A DNA stretch of 64,000 nucleotides, from assembly GCA_021776525.1 (NCBI GenBank), contig JAJFFT010000005.1:248001-312000 (forward strand), written 5' to 3'. How positions within the stretch are numbered: position 1 is the stretch's first letter; every line of letters begins with the position of its first letter. The position numbers were made by a program, and so were the translations under genes. Under the pieces are notes generated by a model. That model was not told where the DNA came from, did not search any database, and was given only the letters and a program-made list of their open reading frames with translations. Origin of the DNA: Robiginitomaculum sp. (lineage in GTDB: Bacteria > Pseudomonadota > Alphaproteobacteria > Caulobacterales > Maricaulaceae). Shown here piece after piece: positions 4,549-14,121 of this stretch.

Positions 4549-6204
4549 ATGAGCAACTCTACTGCCCGAAAGGGTATGGGATTGGATGTACTGACGCTGG
4601 GCGTGTTCTTGAGCATATTGGCACTGGTGAGTTTGTTTCTGACCGCCAAAACGCACGACCCATTAATGAAAGTGCATGCTGTTATCCTGCTTGGCGCTTT
4701 TGTCTTGGGCATTGCAGCCCTGTTTATGCGCGCCGCGAGTGGATTGAGTTTTGATCAGTCAAAATACGAAGAAGGCATTATCAAAGCCGGTATTGTCGCC
4801 ACCACATTCTGGGGCATTGTCGGCTTTCTTGTTGGCGTTATTATTGCTTCGCAACTGGCTTTTCCAAACCTCTTGTATTTTGAGAATATTGGCTGGCTGA
4901 ACTTTGGGCGGCTGCGCCCTGTTCACACCTCGGCGGTGATTTTTGCCTTTGGCGGCAATGCGCTGATGGTGACATCATTTTATGTTGTTCAACGCACCAA
5001 CCATGCGCGTCTTGCCGGTGGTGTCTGGCCCTGGTTTGTGTTCTGGGGCTATCAGCTGTTTATTGTTCTGGCCGCAACCGGTTATGTCAGCGGTGTCACG
5101 CAAAGCAAAGAATATGCTGAACCGGAATGGTATATTGATCTCTGGCTGACCATTGTCTGGGTTTCTTACTTGCTGGTTTTCCTGGGCACGCTCTGGAAAC
5201 GTAAAATCAAGCATATTTACGTGGCCAACTGGTTTTATCTGTCGTTTATCGTCACCGTGGCGATGCTGCATATTATCAACAATATTTCCATTCCGATTGG
5301 CCTGACCGAGCACAAAAGCTATTCGCTGTTCTCTGGCGTTCAAGATGCCATGACCCAATGGTGGTACGGCCATAATGCCGTGGGCTTTTTCCTGACTGCC
5401 GGGTTCTTGGGCATTATGTATTACTTTGTGCCCAAACGTGCCGAGCGGCCCGTATATTCTTACCGTCTGTCGATTGTGCACTTCTGGTCGCTAATCTTCA
5501 TTTATATCTGGGCCGGCCCGCACCATTTGCACTACACGGCGTTGCCAATGTGGGCACAAACACTGGGCATGACATTCTCGATTATTCTGTGGATGCCGTC
5601 CTGGGGTGGGATGATCAACGGCCTGATGACGCTCTCTGGTGCCTGGGACAAGCTGCGCACCGACCCGGTCATGCGTATGCTGGTGGTCTCGGTGGCCTTT
5701 TATGGCATGAGCACATTCGAAGGTCCGGTGATGTCGATCCGCGCGGTCAACTCGCTGTCACACTATACCGACTGGACAATTGGCCACGTGCATTCCGGTG
5801 CGCTGGGCTGGGTGGCCTATGTCAGCTTTGGCGCCCTATACTGCATGGTACCATGGGTGTGGAAACGGGCGCGGCTCTATTCCAACGATCTGGTTGAATG
5901 GCATTTCTGGATTTCGACAATCGGGATTGTGTTCTACATCACATCCAGGTGGGTCAGTGGTATTAAGCAAGGCCTGATGTGGCGCGCCTAAAACAGCTTT
6001 GGTTTCCTGGAATACTCCTTTGTGGAAACCGTCGAAGCCATGCACCCGTATTACATTATTCGGGCTACCGGCGGGCTGTTATTCCTGATCGGCGCCTTGA
6101 TTATGGCGTACAATTTGTGGCGCACCGCACGCGGTGATGTTCGCAAAGGGGAGGCGCTTCCTGATATGCCGCCGCTTTCCATCGCTATACCGGCTGTGAG
6201 GTAG
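4549..6204 (+). pseudogene. ccoN: cbb3 cytochrome oxidase subunit I, in-frame stop
   Basis: Heme-copper oxidase subunit of the high-affinity cbb3 terminal oxidase, where oxygen is reduced and protons are pumped. The reading frame from ATG 4549 (AAGGGGA upstream) gives 480 residues with the expected many membrane helices and histidine ligand segments: [33 protein letters not shown] and [11 protein letters not shown]. It then meets TAA at 5989-5991, right after GLMWRA. The same frame continues past the stop with family-typical [20 protein letters not shown] and a last hydrophobic helix until TAG 6202-6204. In relatives the stop position is commonly Tyr or another sense residue, and TAT/TAC differs from TAA by one base. 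The rest of the operon is intact, so a point mutation or a sequence error is likely; the truncated product would lack about 70 residues. Confidence 0.9.
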
Positions 6205-6214
6205 GGAGAGAATT

Positions 6215-6949
6215 ATGGCTTTTAAACATGAAGTACTTGAAAAAAACTCTCTGCTTTTAACCCTGGGCATACTGATTGTGGTGTCCATTGGTGGGCTGGT
6301 CGAGATTGCTCCGCTTTTCTACCTCTCGAGCACGATCGAGAAGGTTGAGGGCATGCGGCCCTATACGCCGCTGGAGCTGACCGGGCGCAATGTCTATGTC
6401 CGCGAAGGGTGTTATCTGTGCCACAGCCAGATGATCCGCCCCTTGCGCGACGAAGCTGAACGGTATGGCCATTACAGTCTGGCCGCAGAGAGCATGTATG
6501 ATCACCCATTCCAGTGGGGGTCCAAACGGACCGGGCCTGATCTGGCTCGTGTCGGGGCCAAATATTCAGATGCCTGGCATCTGGCTCACTTGAATGACCC
6601 ACGCGCCGTCGTGCCGGAATCCGTTATGCCGCCCTATAAATTCCTGAATGACAATATTCTGGACGGGCGGACCATTATGGCAGAGCTGAAAACCAATCGT
6701 ATTGTTGGTGTTCCATACAGTGATGCGCAAATCGAAGCCGCCAAAGCGGACCTGGCCACTCAGGTGGATGAATATGCCGACGATTATGATGGGTTTATGG
6801 CCCGTTATCCCGGTGCGAATGTCCGCGACTTTGACGGCAATCCAGAGCATCTGACCGAGATGGATGCATTGATCGCCTATTTGCAAATGCTTGGCACCTT
6901 GGTTGATTTTTCAACCTATGAAGCCGATGCCGAAGAAAACCTGCGTTAA
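6215..6949 (+). CDS. ccoO: cbb3 oxidase subunit II, monoheme cytochrome c
   Basis: A 244-residue membrane-anchored cytochrome c, the conserved second core subunit of cbb3 oxidase that passes electrons from CcoP to the CcoN heme-copper centre. One N-terminal transmembrane helix (about residues 13-36) precedes the heme-binding motif CYLCH at residues 66-70; [10 protein letters not shown] and the distal MPPYKFL segment, supplying the axial Met, follow. The length and order are normal for CcoO. A GGGAGAG ribosome binding site lies about 6 bases before the ATG. It sits 10 bases after the end of the ccoN frame and 11 bases before ccoQ. Confidence 0.96.
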
Positions 6950-6960
6950 GGGAGAAAGCT

Positions 6961-7134
6961 ATGTCATATGAAGATGTTGCCGCATTCGCGCAGACCTGGG
7001 GGCTGGTCTATTTCGCCATATTGTTTGGCTTGATTGTTCTTTACGCTTTATGGCCGGGCAATCAGAAACAGTTTGACGAAGCTGCGCGTATTCCTCTTGA
7101 AGACGGGCCTCTAGATGATGAGGAGGGCAAATAA
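6961..7134 (+). CDS. ccoQ: cbb3 oxidase small subunit CcoQ/FixQ
   Basis: A 57-residue single-helix protein. The helix (about residues 12-31, ending ALWPGN) is followed by a short acidic cytoplasmic tail, the usual plan for CcoQ, which stabilises the assembled cbb3 oxidase and protects it in oxygen. The start ATG follows a GGGAGA ribosome binding site, and its TAA overlaps the ccoP ATG (TAATG at 7132-7136), showing tight coupling. The annotation is based on position between ccoO and ccoP together with size and topology. Confidence 0.93.
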   Translation: MSYEDVAAFAQTWGLVYFAILFGLIVLYALWPGNQKQFDEAARIPLEDGPLDDEEGK

Positions 7135-8009
7135 TGTCAAAACGTCCAGACGTTGATGACCATTCCGGTACGGAAACAACCGGCCATGAATGGGACGAAA
7201 TCAAAGAACTGAACACGCCATTGCCGCGCTGGTGGCTGACCATCTGGTTCGGCTGCATTGCCATCGCTGCTGTCTATATGGTGTTGATGCCATCTTGGCC
7301 TCTGCCATGGGCAGACACCTATATCAAAGGCCTGCGCAACTATTCAGAACGTGCTACTTTTGAAGCCGATATGGTCAAACTGGCCGCATCGCGCGGCCCG
7401 GACGAAATTCGATTGGCCAATACAGCACTGGATCAAGTTGAAAGCGATCCTGAATTGCTGAACTTTGCCATGGCGGCAGGCAAATCCGCCTTCGGCGATA
7501 ATTGTGCCACCTGCCACGGTTCTGGCGGTGTCGGGACCAATGGTTATCCGGCTCTGGTTGATGATGTCTGGCTGTGGGGTGGGTCGCTGGACGATATTCA
7601 GTATACGATTACGAATGGTGTTCGCTCGACCGGTGACGACACGCGGTTTTCGCAAATGCCGGCGTTTGGTAAAGACGAGTTGCTGACCAAAGATGAAATC
7701 AGCGACCTTGTCGAGTATGTGACTAACCTGTCCGGCGGCGAGGCCGATGCAGCCGCGGTTGGTCGGGCTCAAATAGTTTTTGCTGATAACTGCTCGGTTT
7801 GTCATGGCGAAGATGGCACAGGCATGCGCGAACTGGGTGCGCCTAATCTCACCGATGCAGATTGGCTTTATTCAGGCAGCCGTGCGGCAATATTGGAAAC
7901 AATTACCAATAGCCGCAACGGTGTGATGCCCACATGGTCAGGCCGTCTGGAACCTTGGACGATCGAAGCATTGAGCATTTATGTTCACTCACTGGGCGGC
8001 GGTGAATAA
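7134..8009 (+). CDS. ccoP: cbb3 oxidase subunit III, diheme cytochrome c
   Basis: A 291-residue diheme cytochrome c that accepts electrons from soluble or membrane cytochromes and delivers them to CcoO. A cytoplasmic N-terminus with HEWDEIKELNTPLPRWW, conserved in CcoP, leads into one membrane helix (about residues 34-53). Two periplasmic heme domains follow, with CATCH at 124-128 and CSVCH at 220-224. MPAFG and MPTWSGR segments supply the methionine ligands. Length and layout are normal. The gene overlaps ccoQ by one base. Confidence 0.96.
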   Translation: MSKRPDVDDHSGTETTGHEWDEIKELNTPLPRWWLTIWFGCIAIAAVYMVLMPSWPLPWADTYIKGLRNYSERATFEADMVKLAASRGPDEIRLANTALDQVESDPELLNFAMAAGKSAFGDNCATCHGSGGVGTNGYPALVDDVWLWGGSLDDIQYTITNGVRSTGDDTRFSQMPAFGKDELLTKDEISDLVEYVTNLSGGEADAAAVGRAQIVFADNCSVCHGEDGTGMRELGAPNLTDADWLYSGSRAAILETITNSRNGVMPTWSGRLEPWTIEALSIYVHSLGGGE

Positions 8010-8041
8010 CACCGCCCTTAAAATCGGCCGTGGAGGCCAAA

Positions 8042-9577
8042 TTGGGTAAAACCACGATTATAGGAGGCTCGCCGGGTAAAAATGGCGGGCCTCAATCGCC
8101 TCAAAAACGACGTGCTGCGCACGGCGTCGAGAAGATCGACGTCACGGCTGTAAACACGCCAGAGCACCGTGAGCTTTATCAAAAACGTATCCCAATTTAC
8201 CCAAAATTGGCCCATGGGTTCTTTCGCAAAGTCAAATGGGCCTTTCTGTTTATTTTGCTGGGTATCTACTACATTGTGCCGTTTATCCGTTGGGACCGGG
8301 GGCCGGGTGCGCCGGACCAGGCCGTTTTGGCGGACTTCGCCGGTCGTCGGTTTTATTTCTTCTTTATCGAAATTTGGCCCCAGGAAGTCTATTACATTAC
8401 TGGCCTTTTGATGCTGTCGGCCTTTGGGTTGTTTATGGCGACATCTTTGTTCGGCCGGGTCTGGTGCGGCTATGCCTGCCCGCAAACCATCTGGACTGAC
8501 CTTTTTATCGCCTTCGAACGGATGATCGAAGGGGACCGCAATGCACGGATCAAGCTGGCACGACAGCCCATGCGCGGTAAGAAACTGGTCAAAAAAATAC
8601 TCAAGCATACGGTATGGCTGCTGATTTCTCTGCTGACCGGTGGTGTGTTTGTGCTCTATTTTCATGATGCGCCAACCGTCGTCCGTGGTTTTTTCACTGG
8701 CCATGCGCCAATGTCAGCTTATCTTTTTACGGCCATTTTGACTTTTACTACCTATTCGCTGGCCGGGACGATGCGCGAACAGGTCTGCACCTATATGTGC
8801 CCCTGGCCACGCATTCAGGGGGCGTTGACAGACGAAGACAGCTTCGAAGTGACGTACCGCGATTATCGTGGCGAACCACGTGGTCCCCACAAAAAGAACG
8901 ACAGCTGGGACGGGCGCGGCGATTGTATTGATTGCAAAATGTGCGTGGCGGTTTGCCCGATGGGCATAGATATACGTGATGGCGACCAGCTGGAATGTAT
9001 CAATTGCGCGCTGTGTATTGATGCTTGCGATTCTGTGATGGAAAAAATCGGACGCCCCAAAGGTCTTATTGCCTATGATACGGCACGTAATCGCGGATTG
9101 ATCTCAAAAGGCGAAAAGCCGGTGTTTCGGATTTTTCGGGCCCGGACTGTACTTTATGGCGTTCTGGTCGGCGGCATTGCCGCGGTTATGTTGTATGGTC
9201 TGGTTACCCGTTCGACGCTGGAATTGAATACGCTGCGCGATCGCAGCCCTACCTTTGTAAGGCTTTCCGATGGTTCTGTGCGCAATGGCTATACACTGAA
9301 AATTATCAACAAAGCGTCGGAGCCGCGTAAGTTTCAAGTTTCTGTTGAGGGCATTGATGGCGCACAGCTCAAAGCCATTGGCCTGAAAGGTGATGGAACA
9401 TCCATTGCAGTCAGCGCCGAGCCGGACAAGGTACGGACCATGAAAATTTATCTGACCGTACCCGCACAGACGGTCAAGTCCTTGAAAGAGTCCACGCCGG
9501 TTTCCATCTTGGTACAAGAGGGTAATGGTGGTGAGCATGCCGTCAATAAAACGGTATTTTTGTCAGGAAAGCGATGA
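8042..9577 (+). CDS. ccoG: Copper oxidase maturation ferredoxin CcoG/FixG/RdxA
   Basis: A polyferredoxin-like membrane protein of about 511 residues needed for copper delivery to cbb3 oxidase; the family is reported to reduce copper. Membrane helices surround a CGYACPQTIW motif, and a ferredoxin domain contains two cysteine clusters, CIDCKMCVAVCP and CINCALCIDAC. A C-terminal immunoglobulin-like periplasmic domain follows. Two starts are possible: GTG 8030, or TTG 8042 with a perfect GGAGG five bases upstream; the latter is chosen for its ribosome binding site. It begins the ccoGHIS assembly block and overlaps ccoH by four bases. Confidence 0.93.
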   Translation: MGKTTIIGGSPGKNGGPQSPQKRRAAHGVEKIDVTAVNTPEHRELYQKRIPIYPKLAHGFFRKVKWAFLFILLGIYYIVPFIRWDRGPGAPDQAVLADFAGRRFYFFFIEIWPQEVYYITGLLMLSAFGLFMATSLFGRVWCGYACPQTIWTDLFIAFERMIEGDRNARIKLARQPMRGKKLVKKILKHTVWLLISLLTGGVFVLYFHDAPTVVRGFFTGHAPMSAYLFTAILTFTTYSLAGTMREQVCTYMCPWPRIQGALTDEDSFEVTYRDYRGEPRGPHKKNDSWDGRGDCIDCKMCVAVCPMGIDIRDGDQLECINCALCIDACDSVMEKIGRPKGLIAYDTARNRGLISKGEKPVFRIFRARTVLYGVLVGGIAAVMLYGLVTRSTLELNTLRDRSPTFVRLSDGSVRNGYTLKIINKASEPRKFQVSVEGIDGAQLKAIGLKGDGTSIAVSAEPDKVRTMKIYLTVPAQTVKSLKESTPVSILVQEGNGGEHAVNKTVFLSGKR

Positions 9578-10053
9578 GCAAGGCTGAATCATTTCAGATT
9601 AAAGGCTGGCATGTCCTGGCCGGGTTGATTGCGTTTTTTGGGGTAATTATTGCCGTCAATGTGATCTTTATTACGCAGGCCACACGCACTTTTCCGGGCG
9701 AGAGCGTTTCGCACCCTTACGAAAAAGGGATCCGTTATAACGAAACTCTGGAAGCGCGGGCACAAACCCAAAAAGAGGGGTGGAAAGCCAGCATTTCCAT
9801 CGCTGAGAACAACACTGTTGAGGTGCAAATCGACAACAAAGAAGGGCCGGTTGATGGCCTTGATGTCTCTGTACGGTTGTTCTGGCCGGGCTTGCCTCAT
9901 GCAGATCAGAACTTGAAACTGCTGCCCAGCGGACCGGGGCAATATCGTGCGAAATTGCAGGCAGATATGGCGCAACAACGTACTATGGAATTTGAGGGAC
10001 AGGCGGTTCGAACGCGTGACGATCTGGTTTTCCCGTTTAAAGGCCGGTTATGA
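9574..10053 (+). CDS. ccoH: cbb3 oxidase assembly protein CcoH/FixH
   Basis: A 159-residue protein with one N-terminal membrane helix (about residues 11-30) and a periplasmic domain of FixH type, including the family-typical YEKGIRYNETLEA near residues 49-61 and a late LFWPGLPHAD segment. CcoH interacts with CcoN and helps assemble the oxidase. The ATG overlaps the ccoG stop (ATGA at 9574-9577), and its own stop overlaps the ccoI ATG, so CcoG, CcoH and CcoI are translationally coupled. Confidence 0.93.
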   Translation: MSKAESFQIKGWHVLAGLIAFFGVIIAVNVIFITQATRTFPGESVSHPYEKGIRYNETLEARAQTQKEGWKASISIAENNTVEVQIDNKEGPVDGLDVSVRLFWPGLPHADQNLKLLPSGPGQYRAKLQADMAQQRTMEFEGQAVRTRDDLVFPFKGRL

Positions 10054-12284
10054 GCATTAGCGACACAGAAGAAAGTCGCGGTTGTCCCACAATGGGTGGG
10101 CCGGTGGCCCAAAAAGGTGCCGCTGCGGACCCCAGCGCCTTTGTCAGGCACGAAGACGACGGATTATCGCATCTGGACTTGCTGGTCCGCGGTGCGCGGT
10201 GCGCCGGGTGTATCTCGAAGATTGAAAAAGGCGTCAACGCCATTGCCGGCGTGCAGACCAGCCAGTTGAACCTCTCAACCGGCAAGCTTACGGTGGGGTG
10301 GGTGCCTGGCGCGGCTGATCCTGGCATCATCGCCCGCACTGTGGCGGATCTTGGGTATCAGGTTTCGCCTTATGATCCAGGTGAGGCCGAGGAAGAACGT
10401 GACAAGCAAGGGCGTTTCTTACTGCTCTGCATGGCAGTGGCAGGGTTTGCCGCCATGAATATCATGTTGTTCTCGGTTTCCGTCTGGGCTGGCTTCTCTG
10501 GCGAGATGCAAGAAAACACACGCTCATTATTTCACTGGGTATCGGCATTGATTGCCTTGCCGGCGGCGGCCTTTGCGGGTCAACCATTTTTTCGGTCTGC
10601 CTTTGCCTCATTGCGCAAGGGCAAGGCCAATATGGATGTTCCCATATCACTGGCGGTCTTGCTGGCCCTTGGGGTCAGTCTTTACGAAACCATCACCGGC
10701 GGAGAGCACGCCTATTTTGACGCAGCAGTGATGCTGTTATTCTTTTTGCTGATCGGGCGCTGGCTGGATCATCGTTTGCGTGGCCAGACCCGCCTTGCGG
10801 CACGCGAGCTGTTATCTTTGCAATCGGCCACTGCCAACCGTATCGAGGCTGATGGCAGCGTCCACGCCGTACAGGCGCGCGATATTGCCCCCGGCGACAC
10901 TATTATTTTGTGGCCCGGCGACCGGGCTCCCGTGGATGGCCAGATTACCGCCGGGCGCTCTGACGTGGATATGGCACTGGTCAGCGGCGAGAGCGCGCCG
11001 GGACTGGTGGAGAAGGGCGACTTTATCCGTGCCGGTATGGTCAATCTGACGGACAAGCTGACGGTATTGGCCAAGGCCCGCACCGAGGATTCATTGTTGG
11101 CAGAGCTGACCCGTCTGGTCGAGGCTGGTGAAACGGCCCGTGGCAAGTTCGTCAAACTGGCCGACCGCGCTGCACAGGCTTATGTGCCGATTGTCCATAC
11201 ATTGGCTGTTTTGTCTTTTGTCGGCTGGATACTGGTTGGGGCCGGGGTGCATCATGCGGTGCTGATCTCGGCTGCGGTCTTGATCATCACCTGTCCGTGC
11301 GCGTTGGGGCTGGCTGCACCAGCCGTACAGATCGTCGCTGTGGGGCGGTTGTTCAAGCGCGGCGTGCTGGTCAAAGCCGGGGATGCACTGGAACGCCTTG
11401 CCGAAATTGACACTGTCCTTTTGGATAAAACCGGCACATTGACGCTGGGCAAACCTCGGCTTGTTAATGCCGCAGACATCAACGATGAAGCCTTAGAACT
11501 TGCCGCCAAACTGGCCCGCACCAGCCGCCATCCCTTGTCGCGTGCTCTTGCTGATCTGGCGGGGCCGGGTGCTGTGGCCAAGGACGCCACAGAGACCGCA
11601 GGGCACGGCGTTGAAGGGCATGTGGATGGGGTGCGCGTGCGTCTTGGCCGGGCCGACTGGACAGGTGTTAATGATGCAGACCAGCAAGCCAGCGGTTTGT
11701 GGCTGGTGGCCGAAGGCCGCGATCCTGTGCATTTCATTTTCGAAGATGCCTTGCGTCTTGATGCGGCTGATATGGTGGCCGGCCTTATGGCACGTGGCTA
11801 TGACGTCGAGATGTTGTCCGGTGACCGCAAAGCCCCGGCGCTTGCCGCCGCTGCAGATGCGGGCATTAAAAACGTCTCTTTCGAGCTAACCCCACAAGAA
11901 AAAATCGCACGCGTAGAGGCACTGGTCCGAGATGGCAAAACCGTTTTGATGATTGGTGATGGCCTCAACGATGCGCCGGCTTTGGCCGCCGCCAATGTTT
12001 CCATGTCACTGGCCAGCGCCGCAGATGCCAGTCAGGCCGCCGCCGACATGGTCTTGCAGGGTGAAAAATTGCTCCCGGTCCTGACGGCCATTGATATATC
12101 TCGCGCCGCACGTGGCCGCATTTTGCAAAACTTTGGATTTGCGGCGGGCTATAACATGGTCGCGGTGCCTTTGGCGGTGTTTGGTTTCGTCACGCCGATG
12201 ATCGCCGCCATTGCCATGTCGTCCTCATCAATCATTGTGACGTTGAATGCACTGCGCCCATTCAAGAGGCACACACCGTCATGA
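10050..12284 (+). CDS. ccoI: Copper-transporting P1B-type ATPase CcoI/FixI
   Basis: A 744-residue P-type ATPase that exports copper to the periplasmic side for cbb3 oxidase maturation. The N-terminus has a CPTMGGP motif (residues 12-18) and one heavy-metal-associated domain with CAGC at 51-54. The transmembrane CPC metal site is in ITCPCALGLAAP (about residue 415). The phosphorylation motif DKTGTLT is near residue 459, and the hinge GDGLNDAPAL completes the ATPase core. This is the slow-export, oxidase-linked (FixI/CopA2) class by context; the sequence alone does not separate it fully from detoxifying CopA. Confidence 0.95.
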   Translation: MSISDTEESRGCPTMGGPVAQKGAAADPSAFVRHEDDGLSHLDLLVRGARCAGCISKIEKGVNAIAGVQTSQLNLSTGKLTVGWVPGAADPGIIARTVADLGYQVSPYDPGEAEEERDKQGRFLLLCMAVAGFAAMNIMLFSVSVWAGFSGEMQENTRSLFHWVSALIALPAAAFAGQPFFRSAFASLRKGKANMDVPISLAVLLALGVSLYETITGGEHAYFDAAVMLLFFLLIGRWLDHRLRGQTRLAARELLSLQSATANRIEADGSVHAVQARDIAPGDTIILWPGDRAPVDGQITAGRSDVDMALVSGESAPGLVEKGDFIRAGMVNLTDKLTVLAKARTEDSLLAELTRLVEAGETARGKFVKLADRAAQAYVPIVHTLAVLSFVGWILVGAGVHHAVLISAAVLIITCPCALGLAAPAVQIVAVGRLFKRGVLVKAGDALERLAEIDTVLLDKTGTLTLGKPRLVNAADINDEALELAAKLARTSRHPLSRALADLAGPGAVAKDATETAGHGVEGHVDGVRVRLGRADWTGVNDADQQASGLWLVAEGRDPVHFIFEDALRLDAADMVAGLMARGYDVEMLSGDRKAPALAAAADAGIKNVSFELTPQEKIARVEALVRDGKTVLMIGDGLNDAPALAAANVSMSLASAADASQAAADMVLQGEKLLPVLTAIDISRAARGRILQNFGFAAGYNMVAVPLAVFGFVTPMIAAIAMSSSSIIVTLNALRPFKRHTPS

Positions 12285-12442
12285 CCGCACTGATCTATCT
12301 TATCCCGGCGGCATTATTCTTGGCGCTATTAGGCCTTGGGGCTTTTATCTGGACCGTTAAATCAGGCCAGTATGACGATATGGACGGTGCCAAATGGCGC
12401 ATCTTTATTGATGATGACCAGGATGATCACATACCAGATTGA
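12281..12442 (+). CDS. ccoS: cbb3 oxidase maturation protein CcoS
   Basis: A 53-residue protein: one membrane helix (about residues 4-26, with FIWTVKSGQYDD directly after it) and a short acidic cytoplasmic tail (DDDQDD). The WxVKSGQYDDxDG pattern is typical of CcoS, which is required for cofactor insertion into cbb3 oxidase. The ATG overlaps the ccoI stop (ATGA at 12281-12284). It is the last gene of the oxidase unit and lies 6 bases from the convergent DUF2189 gene. Confidence 0.94.
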   Translation: MTALIYLIPAALFLALLGLGAFIWTVKSGQYDDMDGAKWRIFIDDDQDDHIPD

Positions 12443-13353: not shown

Positions 13354-14121
13354 ATGGCACGCTATAATTTCGATCTGACGGGCAAGGTTGCCTTTGTTAA
13401 TGGGGCTTCGCGCGGTATAGGCGCGGCGGTGGCCGAAGGGTTGGCGGCACGCGGTGCGCATGTGATTTGTGCCAGTCGTAAGCTCGAAGGGTGCGCGGCG
13501 GTTGCCAAAAGTATCACCGAATCAGGTGACAGCGCCGAGGCAATGGCCTGTCATGCGGGCCATATGGACCAGATCGAAGCGGCCATACAGCATGTTCGCG
13601 ACACCCATGGCCGCCTTGATATTCTGATCAATAACGCCGCAACCAACCCGTTTTTTGGCCCATCGGCCGACACCCCCGAAGGGGCGTTTGATAAAACCAT
13701 TGATGTCAATTTAAAGGGGCCGTTTTTCTTGTGCGCTCAGGCCATCCCTTTGATGAAAGACGGCGGCGGCGGGGCAATCGTCAATGTGGCGTCGATCAAT
13801 GCAGTAGAGCCGGGGCATTTTCAGGCCGTGTATTCGATGACCAAGGCGGCGCTGGTCAATATGACCAAGGCCATGGCCAAGGAATATGCCCGCGACAAAA
13901 TCCGCGTTAATGCCTTATTGCCTGGGTTTACCGACACCAAAATGACCGCGGTGTTCAAAGCCAATGAAGACAGCCTAAACACTTTGCTTGATGAAAATGT
14001 ACCGATGAACCGCATGGCACAACCCGATGAGATGGTCGGCGCCGTATTGTATCTGGTTTCGGATGAGGCCTCATATACCACCGGCGCGCAAATTATTGTC
14101 GATGGGGGGTATCTGCTTTGA
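13354..14121 (+). CDS. SDR family oxidoreductase
   Basis: A 255-residue short-chain dehydrogenase/reductase. It has the Rossmann glycine motif NGASRGIG (about residues 15-22), the NNAA motif, and the catalytic YxxxK within YSMTKAAL. ASRK after the second strand suggests NADP(H) preference, but this is not certain. It is the first gene of a block with a phosphotransferase and three acyl-CoA dehydrogenases, so its substrate is probably a hydroxyacyl-CoA or ketoacyl-CoA. ATG 13354 follows CAGGGG; a TTG 27 bases upstream is the less likely alternative. The stop overlaps the next start. Confidence 0.88.
   Translation: MARYNFDLTGKVAFVNGASRGIGAAVAEGLAARGAHVICASRKLEGCAAVAKSITESGDSAEAMACHAGHMDQIEAAIQHVRDTHGRLDILINNAATNPFFGPSADTPEGAFDKTIDVNLKGPFFLCAQAIPLMKDGGGGAIVNVASINAVEPGHFQAVYSMTKAALVNMTKAMAKEYARDKIRVNALLPGFTDTKMTAVFKANEDSLNTLLDENVPMNRMAQPDEMVGAVLYLVSDEASYTTGAQIIVDGGYLL

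What the first reader, a model, noticed from the sequence alone, without database searches (positions are those of the whole stretch)
5989..5991. In-frame TAA in ccoN within an otherwise intact cbb3 operon
The ccoN frame has TAA after GLMWRA, yet the same frame continues with family-typical sequence ([20 protein letters not shown] and a last membrane helix) up to TAG at 6202-6204. The usual residue there (often Tyr) is one base from TAA. ccoO, ccoQ, ccoP and ccoGHIS are all intact. Explanations: sequencing or assembly error, a recent nonsense mutation that truncates the oxidase, or stop-codon readthrough.
Basis: partly seen in the sequence, partly recalled or inferred. Interest (0 to 1): 0.75.

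Follow-up and report, generated by a model that had tools for sequence, protein, structure and literature searches.

The report
Stop codon in ccoN, probably artefact
A respiratory oxidase gene in this bacterial genome carries an internal stop codon together with two other damaging changes packed into 44 bases, which looks like a patch of faulty assembled sequence or else an ordinary recent gene loss, and not a new way of reading stop codons.

Summary
The in-frame TAA at 5989-5991 is there, and the frame beyond it is true CcoN sequence. It is the only internal stop found in 47,995 window bases that relatives support as coding. None of the 12 other ccoN-bearing genomes of the genus, and none of 108 relatives, has a stop at this codon. 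They are two of only three hydrophobic-to-charged changes among 4134 columns unanimous in at least three relatives; two or more of three falling within 15 codons of the stop has a chance of about 1.25e-4 (a test chosen after seeing the data). The lesions therefore probably share a local cause. The rest of ccoN, including the part after the stop, shows no decay. Readthrough is poorly supported: the stop is not conserved, none of 38 tRNAs reads UAA, the RNA fold is unremarkable, and the product would still carry both new charges. I favour a local consensus error in an assembly that lacks rpoB and rpoC; a very recent null allele is the main rival. Reads would decide. Interest is low.

The parts
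4549..5991 (+). ccoN up to the in-frame stop: 480 codons, then TAA
5947..5949 (+). codon 467, Arg where 108 relatives have Met (102) or Leu (6)
5965..5967 (+). codon 473, Lys where 108 relatives have Met 73, Leu 17, Thr 9, Gln 7, Asn 1, Gly 1
5989..5991 (+). codon 481, TAA where 108 relatives have Tyr 97, Val 10, Phe 1
5992..6204 (+). rest of the ccoN frame, 70 codons and TAG, with the last membrane helix
   Evidence: helix place from the model of an intact relative
6215..6949 (+). ccoO, open
6961..7134 (+). ccoQ, open; named by position
   Evidence: no family match
7134..8009 (+). ccoP, open
8030..9577 (+). ccoG, open
9574..10053 (+). ccoH, open; named by position
   Evidence: no family match
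10050..12284 (+). ccoI, copper P-type ATPase, open
12281..12442 (+). ccoS, open

Best explanation
The TAA belongs to a short patch (5948-5991, perhaps from 5919) in which the assembled sequence departs from the relatives at three or four bases without regard to protein function. Most likely this is a local error of the consensus, for example a thinly covered stretch bridged by one poor read, and the organism's real ccoN is intact. Shown: the cluster, its severity, the lack of decay elsewhere, and that the assembly lacks rpoB and rpoC. Inferred: that the reads would not support these bases.
For: Three changes never seen at their sites in 108 relatives lie within 44 bases. Two of the window's three hydrophobic-to-charged changes (of 58 differences in 4134 unanimous columns) lie beside the only internal stop; chance about 1.25e-4. 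Outside the patch ccoN departs from the genus-invariant columns only at R72K, and not at all after the stop. rpoB and rpoC are missing from G000 but found, at least in part, in the other 17 genus genomes; no tRNA labelled Trp or Ile among 38. The assembly is therefore incomplete, as in a metagenome bin (inference). G017 shows that congeneric assemblies hold local faults: its ccoN, rpoB and rpoC are each split between frames.
Against: The rest of the window is clean and the contigs are long. All three bases are single substitutions that could be real. The severity test was chosen after the fact; plainer clustering tests give 0.008 (ccoN) and 0.033 (operon). Four private bases in 75 is not rare: the densest 75-base run in the 12 relatives holds 1 to 13. 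The window's count of unprecedented residues at columns at least 90% conserved is 1, within the 0 to 6 of the other 108. No reads or coverage were available.
Confidence: 0.55

Rival explanations
1. A real and very recent null allele of ccoN, perhaps with its changes made in one error-prone replication event. The protein ends after the second-last helix, cbb3 oxidase does not assemble, and the cell breathes with another haem-copper oxidase, probably aa3-type.
For: cbb3 is dispensable in the genus: 5 of 18 genomes have neither ccoN nor ccoO, one of them 99% complete. All 18 have another strong COX1 match, taken as aa3-type by inference. Premature ccoN stops occur in named isolates: 14 of 14 B. 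pertussis strains examined and one B. bronchiseptica isolate (PMC11257404, passages). The other operon genes are open, as expected of a recent loss.
Against: Ordinary decay should spread over the gene, not sit in 44 bases. A multiple-change event is possible but less common than assembly faults (general knowledge, not tested).
Confidence: 0.37
2. Programmed or tolerated readthrough: ribosomes insert an amino acid at UAA and make full-length CcoN.
For: The frame after the stop is conserved, but an error or a fresh mutation predicts that equally.
Against: Stop in 0 of 108 relatives; no tRNA with a UUA anticodon among 38, though the set is incomplete; RNA after the stop folds like shuffles (z -1.30, 29 of 200 at least as stable); the product would carry two new charges in a membrane helix; no other internal stop in the checked part of the window.
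Confidence: 0.04
3. Split CcoN: a truncated subunit plus a separately started small protein (for example from GTG 6022) that supplies the last helix.
For: GTG 6022 opens a 60-codon frame to 6204. Histidine-rich motifs known as metal ligands (roles recalled) lie before the stop.
Against: ccoN is continuous across the site in the relatives examined; no feature beyond an open frame supports the start.
Confidence: 0.02

Closest known systems
Premature stops in ccoN of Bordetella (PMC11257404, passages)
   Same: An internal stop in ccoN; cbb3 lost while other oxidases remain
   Different: There the same stops recur in 14 of 14 B. pertussis strains, so they are real; here there is one assembly, with two charged changes beside the stop
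One-base stop truncating meningococcal CcoP (PMC2924362, passages)
   Same: A one-base stop in a cbb3 operon gene
   Different: Another subunit; the loss there removes a third haem domain and is fixed in the strains described
ccoN of L091, a distant alphaproteobacterial metagenome genome
   Same: One internal stop in an otherwise conserved ccoN frame, in a metagenome assembly
   Different: Different codon (344) and a distant lineage

Membership tests
CcoN (cbb3 oxidase subunit I, TIGR00780) | Score above the curated cut-off | tested here: met
   686.4 against 583.15 bits for codons 1-480
CcoN (cbb3 oxidase subunit I, TIGR00780) | Complete set of membrane helices in one chain | tested here: not met
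   Under the standard code the chain ends at codon 480; the last helix of an intact relative is at 499-528
Pseudogene (real null allele) | Inactivating lesion in the frame | tested here: met
   TAA at codon 481 in the assembled sequence; inactivation itself is inferred
Pseudogene (real null allele) | Relaxed constraint over the gene | tested here: not met
   4 of 378 genus-invariant columns changed, 3 of them in the patch, 0 after the stop; a very recent loss need not show this
Stop-codon readthrough | Stop conserved in relatives | tested here: not met
   0 of 108
Stop-codon readthrough | tRNA able to read UAA | tested here: inconclusive
   None among 38 tRNAs, but the assembly is incomplete
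Stop-codon readthrough | Stimulating RNA structure after the stop | tested here: not met
   z -1.30 over the first 100 bases
Stop-codon readthrough | Extended protein detected | not testable with these tools
   No proteome available
Consensus or assembly error | Bases not supported by reads or by a second genome of the species | not testable with these tools

The most novel reading that the evidence does not exclude
CcoN is made in this organism by inefficient UAA readthrough or as two polypeptides, with the changes at codons 467 and 473 part of a rebuilt helix end, so that the stop limits the amount of high-affinity oxidase.
Probability: 0.03. Interest if true: 0.6.

Novelty: not a real feature. 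Interest (0 to 1): 0.12.

Why it matters
Mainly as a caution: an internal stop in one assembled genome, with severe changes packed around it and no decay elsewhere, should be checked against reads before anyone claims oxidase loss or recoding. If the null allele were real, it would be one more loss of cbb3 in a genus where the operon is already patchy (5 of 18 genomes have neither ccoN nor ccoO).

Tried and rejected
A second ccoN copy in G000: PF00115 gave three places and only the window's is ccoN by position; the full-length ccoN query matched one place; the 131-base patch matches nothing else.

A changed genetic code: no other internal stop in the checked part of the window.

A frameshift in the window: one search listed 11 candidate pairs. 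Three in real gene frames (L140 twice, L143 once) come from G017, and the window frame there is open except for the ccoN stop itself; I took the others for antisense or gene-edge frames without checking each.

A peculiar mutational spectrum: the four private changes from 5919 to 5991 are all transversions, but so are 19 of 36 over the operon, so I do not lean on it.

A chimeric join at the patch: in 150-base steps no relative's identity switches there against the others (by eye).

A local hotspot: G002 has three private changes at codons 484-501; not pursued. Rescue by cytochrome bd: PF01654 in 0 of 18 genus genomes.

Papers: ccoN with 'premature stop codon' (19 of 19 listed), cbb3/pseudogene/ccoN (15 of 18 listed), ccoN and helix terms (10 of 15 listed), readthrough terms (one, none), assembly-error terms (none). 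I saw passages of PMC2924362 and PMC11257404 only, and listings of the rest.

Weak points of the counts: the 108 relatives are 12 genus loci, 17 of the 63 further family matches (those given a locus) and 79 of 80 genome-contig loci (L049 dropped as the same contig as G011). L037 and L064 are the same sequence; a partial check found no other pair. In one search my script misread the codons of minus-strand loci (the residues were right); one search replaces it. In one search the minus-strand rows are likewise meaningless. In one search ccoQ was given out of frame and says nothing.

Full report
What is there. The window is G000:C5:248001-312000, from an assembly of 2.96 Mb in 7 contigs, 94.73% complete. 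Its congener G011 has the contig length and CcoN identity (94%) of L049, a metagenome genome titled Robiginitomaculum sp. OFTM234. ccoN starts at ATG 4549 and is followed by ccoO, ccoQ, ccoP, ccoG, ccoH, ccoI and ccoS, all open. An in-frame TAA stands at 5989-5991, codon 481; the frame then runs to TAG at 6202-6204. Both sides match one NCBIfam ccoN model in order.

Is it usual? No. In the genus 13 of 18 genomes have ccoN, and none of the 12 others has a stop at this codon. In the family 76 of 137 genomes matched a 120-residue probe across the site, and only G000 shows a stop in it. Over 108 relatives the residue is Tyr 97, Val 10, Phe 1. Broken ccoN frames do occur: L091 has a stop at codon 344, and congener G017 has a frameshift where it carries a run of ten G and G006 carries eight. 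G017 also has rpoB and rpoC split between frames, so its frameshift is probably an assembly fault (inference).

Codon 467 is Arg (Met 102, Leu 6 in relatives) and codon 473 is Lys (Met 73, Leu 17, Thr 9, Gln 7, Asn 1, Gly 1). Among 109 CcoN sequences M467R is the only charged residue or stop, unprecedented in its column, at a hydrophobic column at least 90% conserved (column 481, at 97 of 108, falls just under that limit). The number of unprecedented residues at such columns is not itself unusual: 1 in the window, 0 to 6 in the others. An AlphaFold2 model of the intact relative L049 (mean pLDDT 74.3) puts both codons in a helix at 446-478 and the last helix, lost here, at 499-528.

How clustered? 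Over the window, 4134 columns were unanimous in at least three relatives; the window differs at 58, and three of these are hydrophobic to charged: these two and a Gly to Asp at 13528. Drawing three at random from the 2528 hydrophobic columns puts two or more within 15 codons of the stop in about 1.25e-4 of trials. I chose that severity class after seeing the data. Plainer tests are weaker: 0.008 for three of four changes within 15 codons in ccoN, 0.033 for three of thirteen over the operon. At the base level the window's densest 75-base run in the operon is this patch, with four private changes, but the 12 relatives have runs of 1 to 13. Severity, not density, is what stands out.

What this means. 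Lesions this close probably share a cause. General decay does not fit: outside the patch ccoN departs from 378 genus-invariant columns only at R72K, and at none after the stop; ccoO departs at 1 of 159, ccoP at 2 of 127, ccoG at 2 of 257, ccoH at 0 of 25, ccoI at 4 of 417. That leaves a local consensus error or one mutational event. The assembly lacks rpoB and rpoC, which the other 17 genus genomes have at least in part, and shows no tRNA labelled Trp or Ile among 38, so it is incomplete and perhaps a metagenome bin (inference). Against error, no other internal stop remains in 47,995 checked coding bases and the contigs are long. I give error 0.55 and a real recent null 0.37.

Would loss be tolerated? 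Probably. All 18 genus genomes have a strong COX1 match besides any ccoN, taken as aa3-type but not tested further; five have neither ccoN nor ccoO. No cytochrome bd was found in the 18.

Readthrough. The conserved frame after the stop is no help, because an error or a fresh mutation predicts it too. The stop is not conserved, no UAA-reading tRNA was seen among 38, the RNA after it folds like shuffles, and the product would keep two new charges in a membrane helix.

Known parallels. Premature stops in ccoN are reported in 14 of 14 B. pertussis strains examined and in one environmental B. bronchiseptica isolate (PMC11257404, passages), and a one-base stop in meningococcal ccoP (PMC2924362, passages). 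The kind is known even if this allele is real.

Noticed in passing
L140 (G017:C22, near 116700): ccoN of congener G017 changes frame at a run of ten G (eight in G006); its rpoB and rpoC are also split between frames, so an assembly fault is likelier than a phase-variable tract.
   Followed up: partly
L091, ccoN codon 344 in window numbering: A distant metagenome-assembled ccoN has one internal stop in an otherwise conserved frame.
   Followed up: partly
G000, whole assembly: rpoB and rpoC are not found, and none of 38 tRNAs is labelled Trp or Ile, though the assembly is rated 94.73% complete.
   Followed up: partly
L133 (G002), ccoN codons 484-501: Three private changes at genus-invariant columns (F484S, Y489N, Y501F) just downstream of the site discussed here.
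   Followed up: no
L003 (G000:C1:141193-142446): A third COX1-family gene with a 461-codon open frame, weaker than aa3 or cbb3 matches; possibly a nitric oxide reductase large subunit (recalled resemblance, untested).
   Followed up: no
Genus of the window (G000-G017): The cbb3 operon is patchy: ccoN and ccoO are both absent from 5 of 18 genomes, one of them 99% complete, and no cytochrome bd was found in any.
   Followed up: partly
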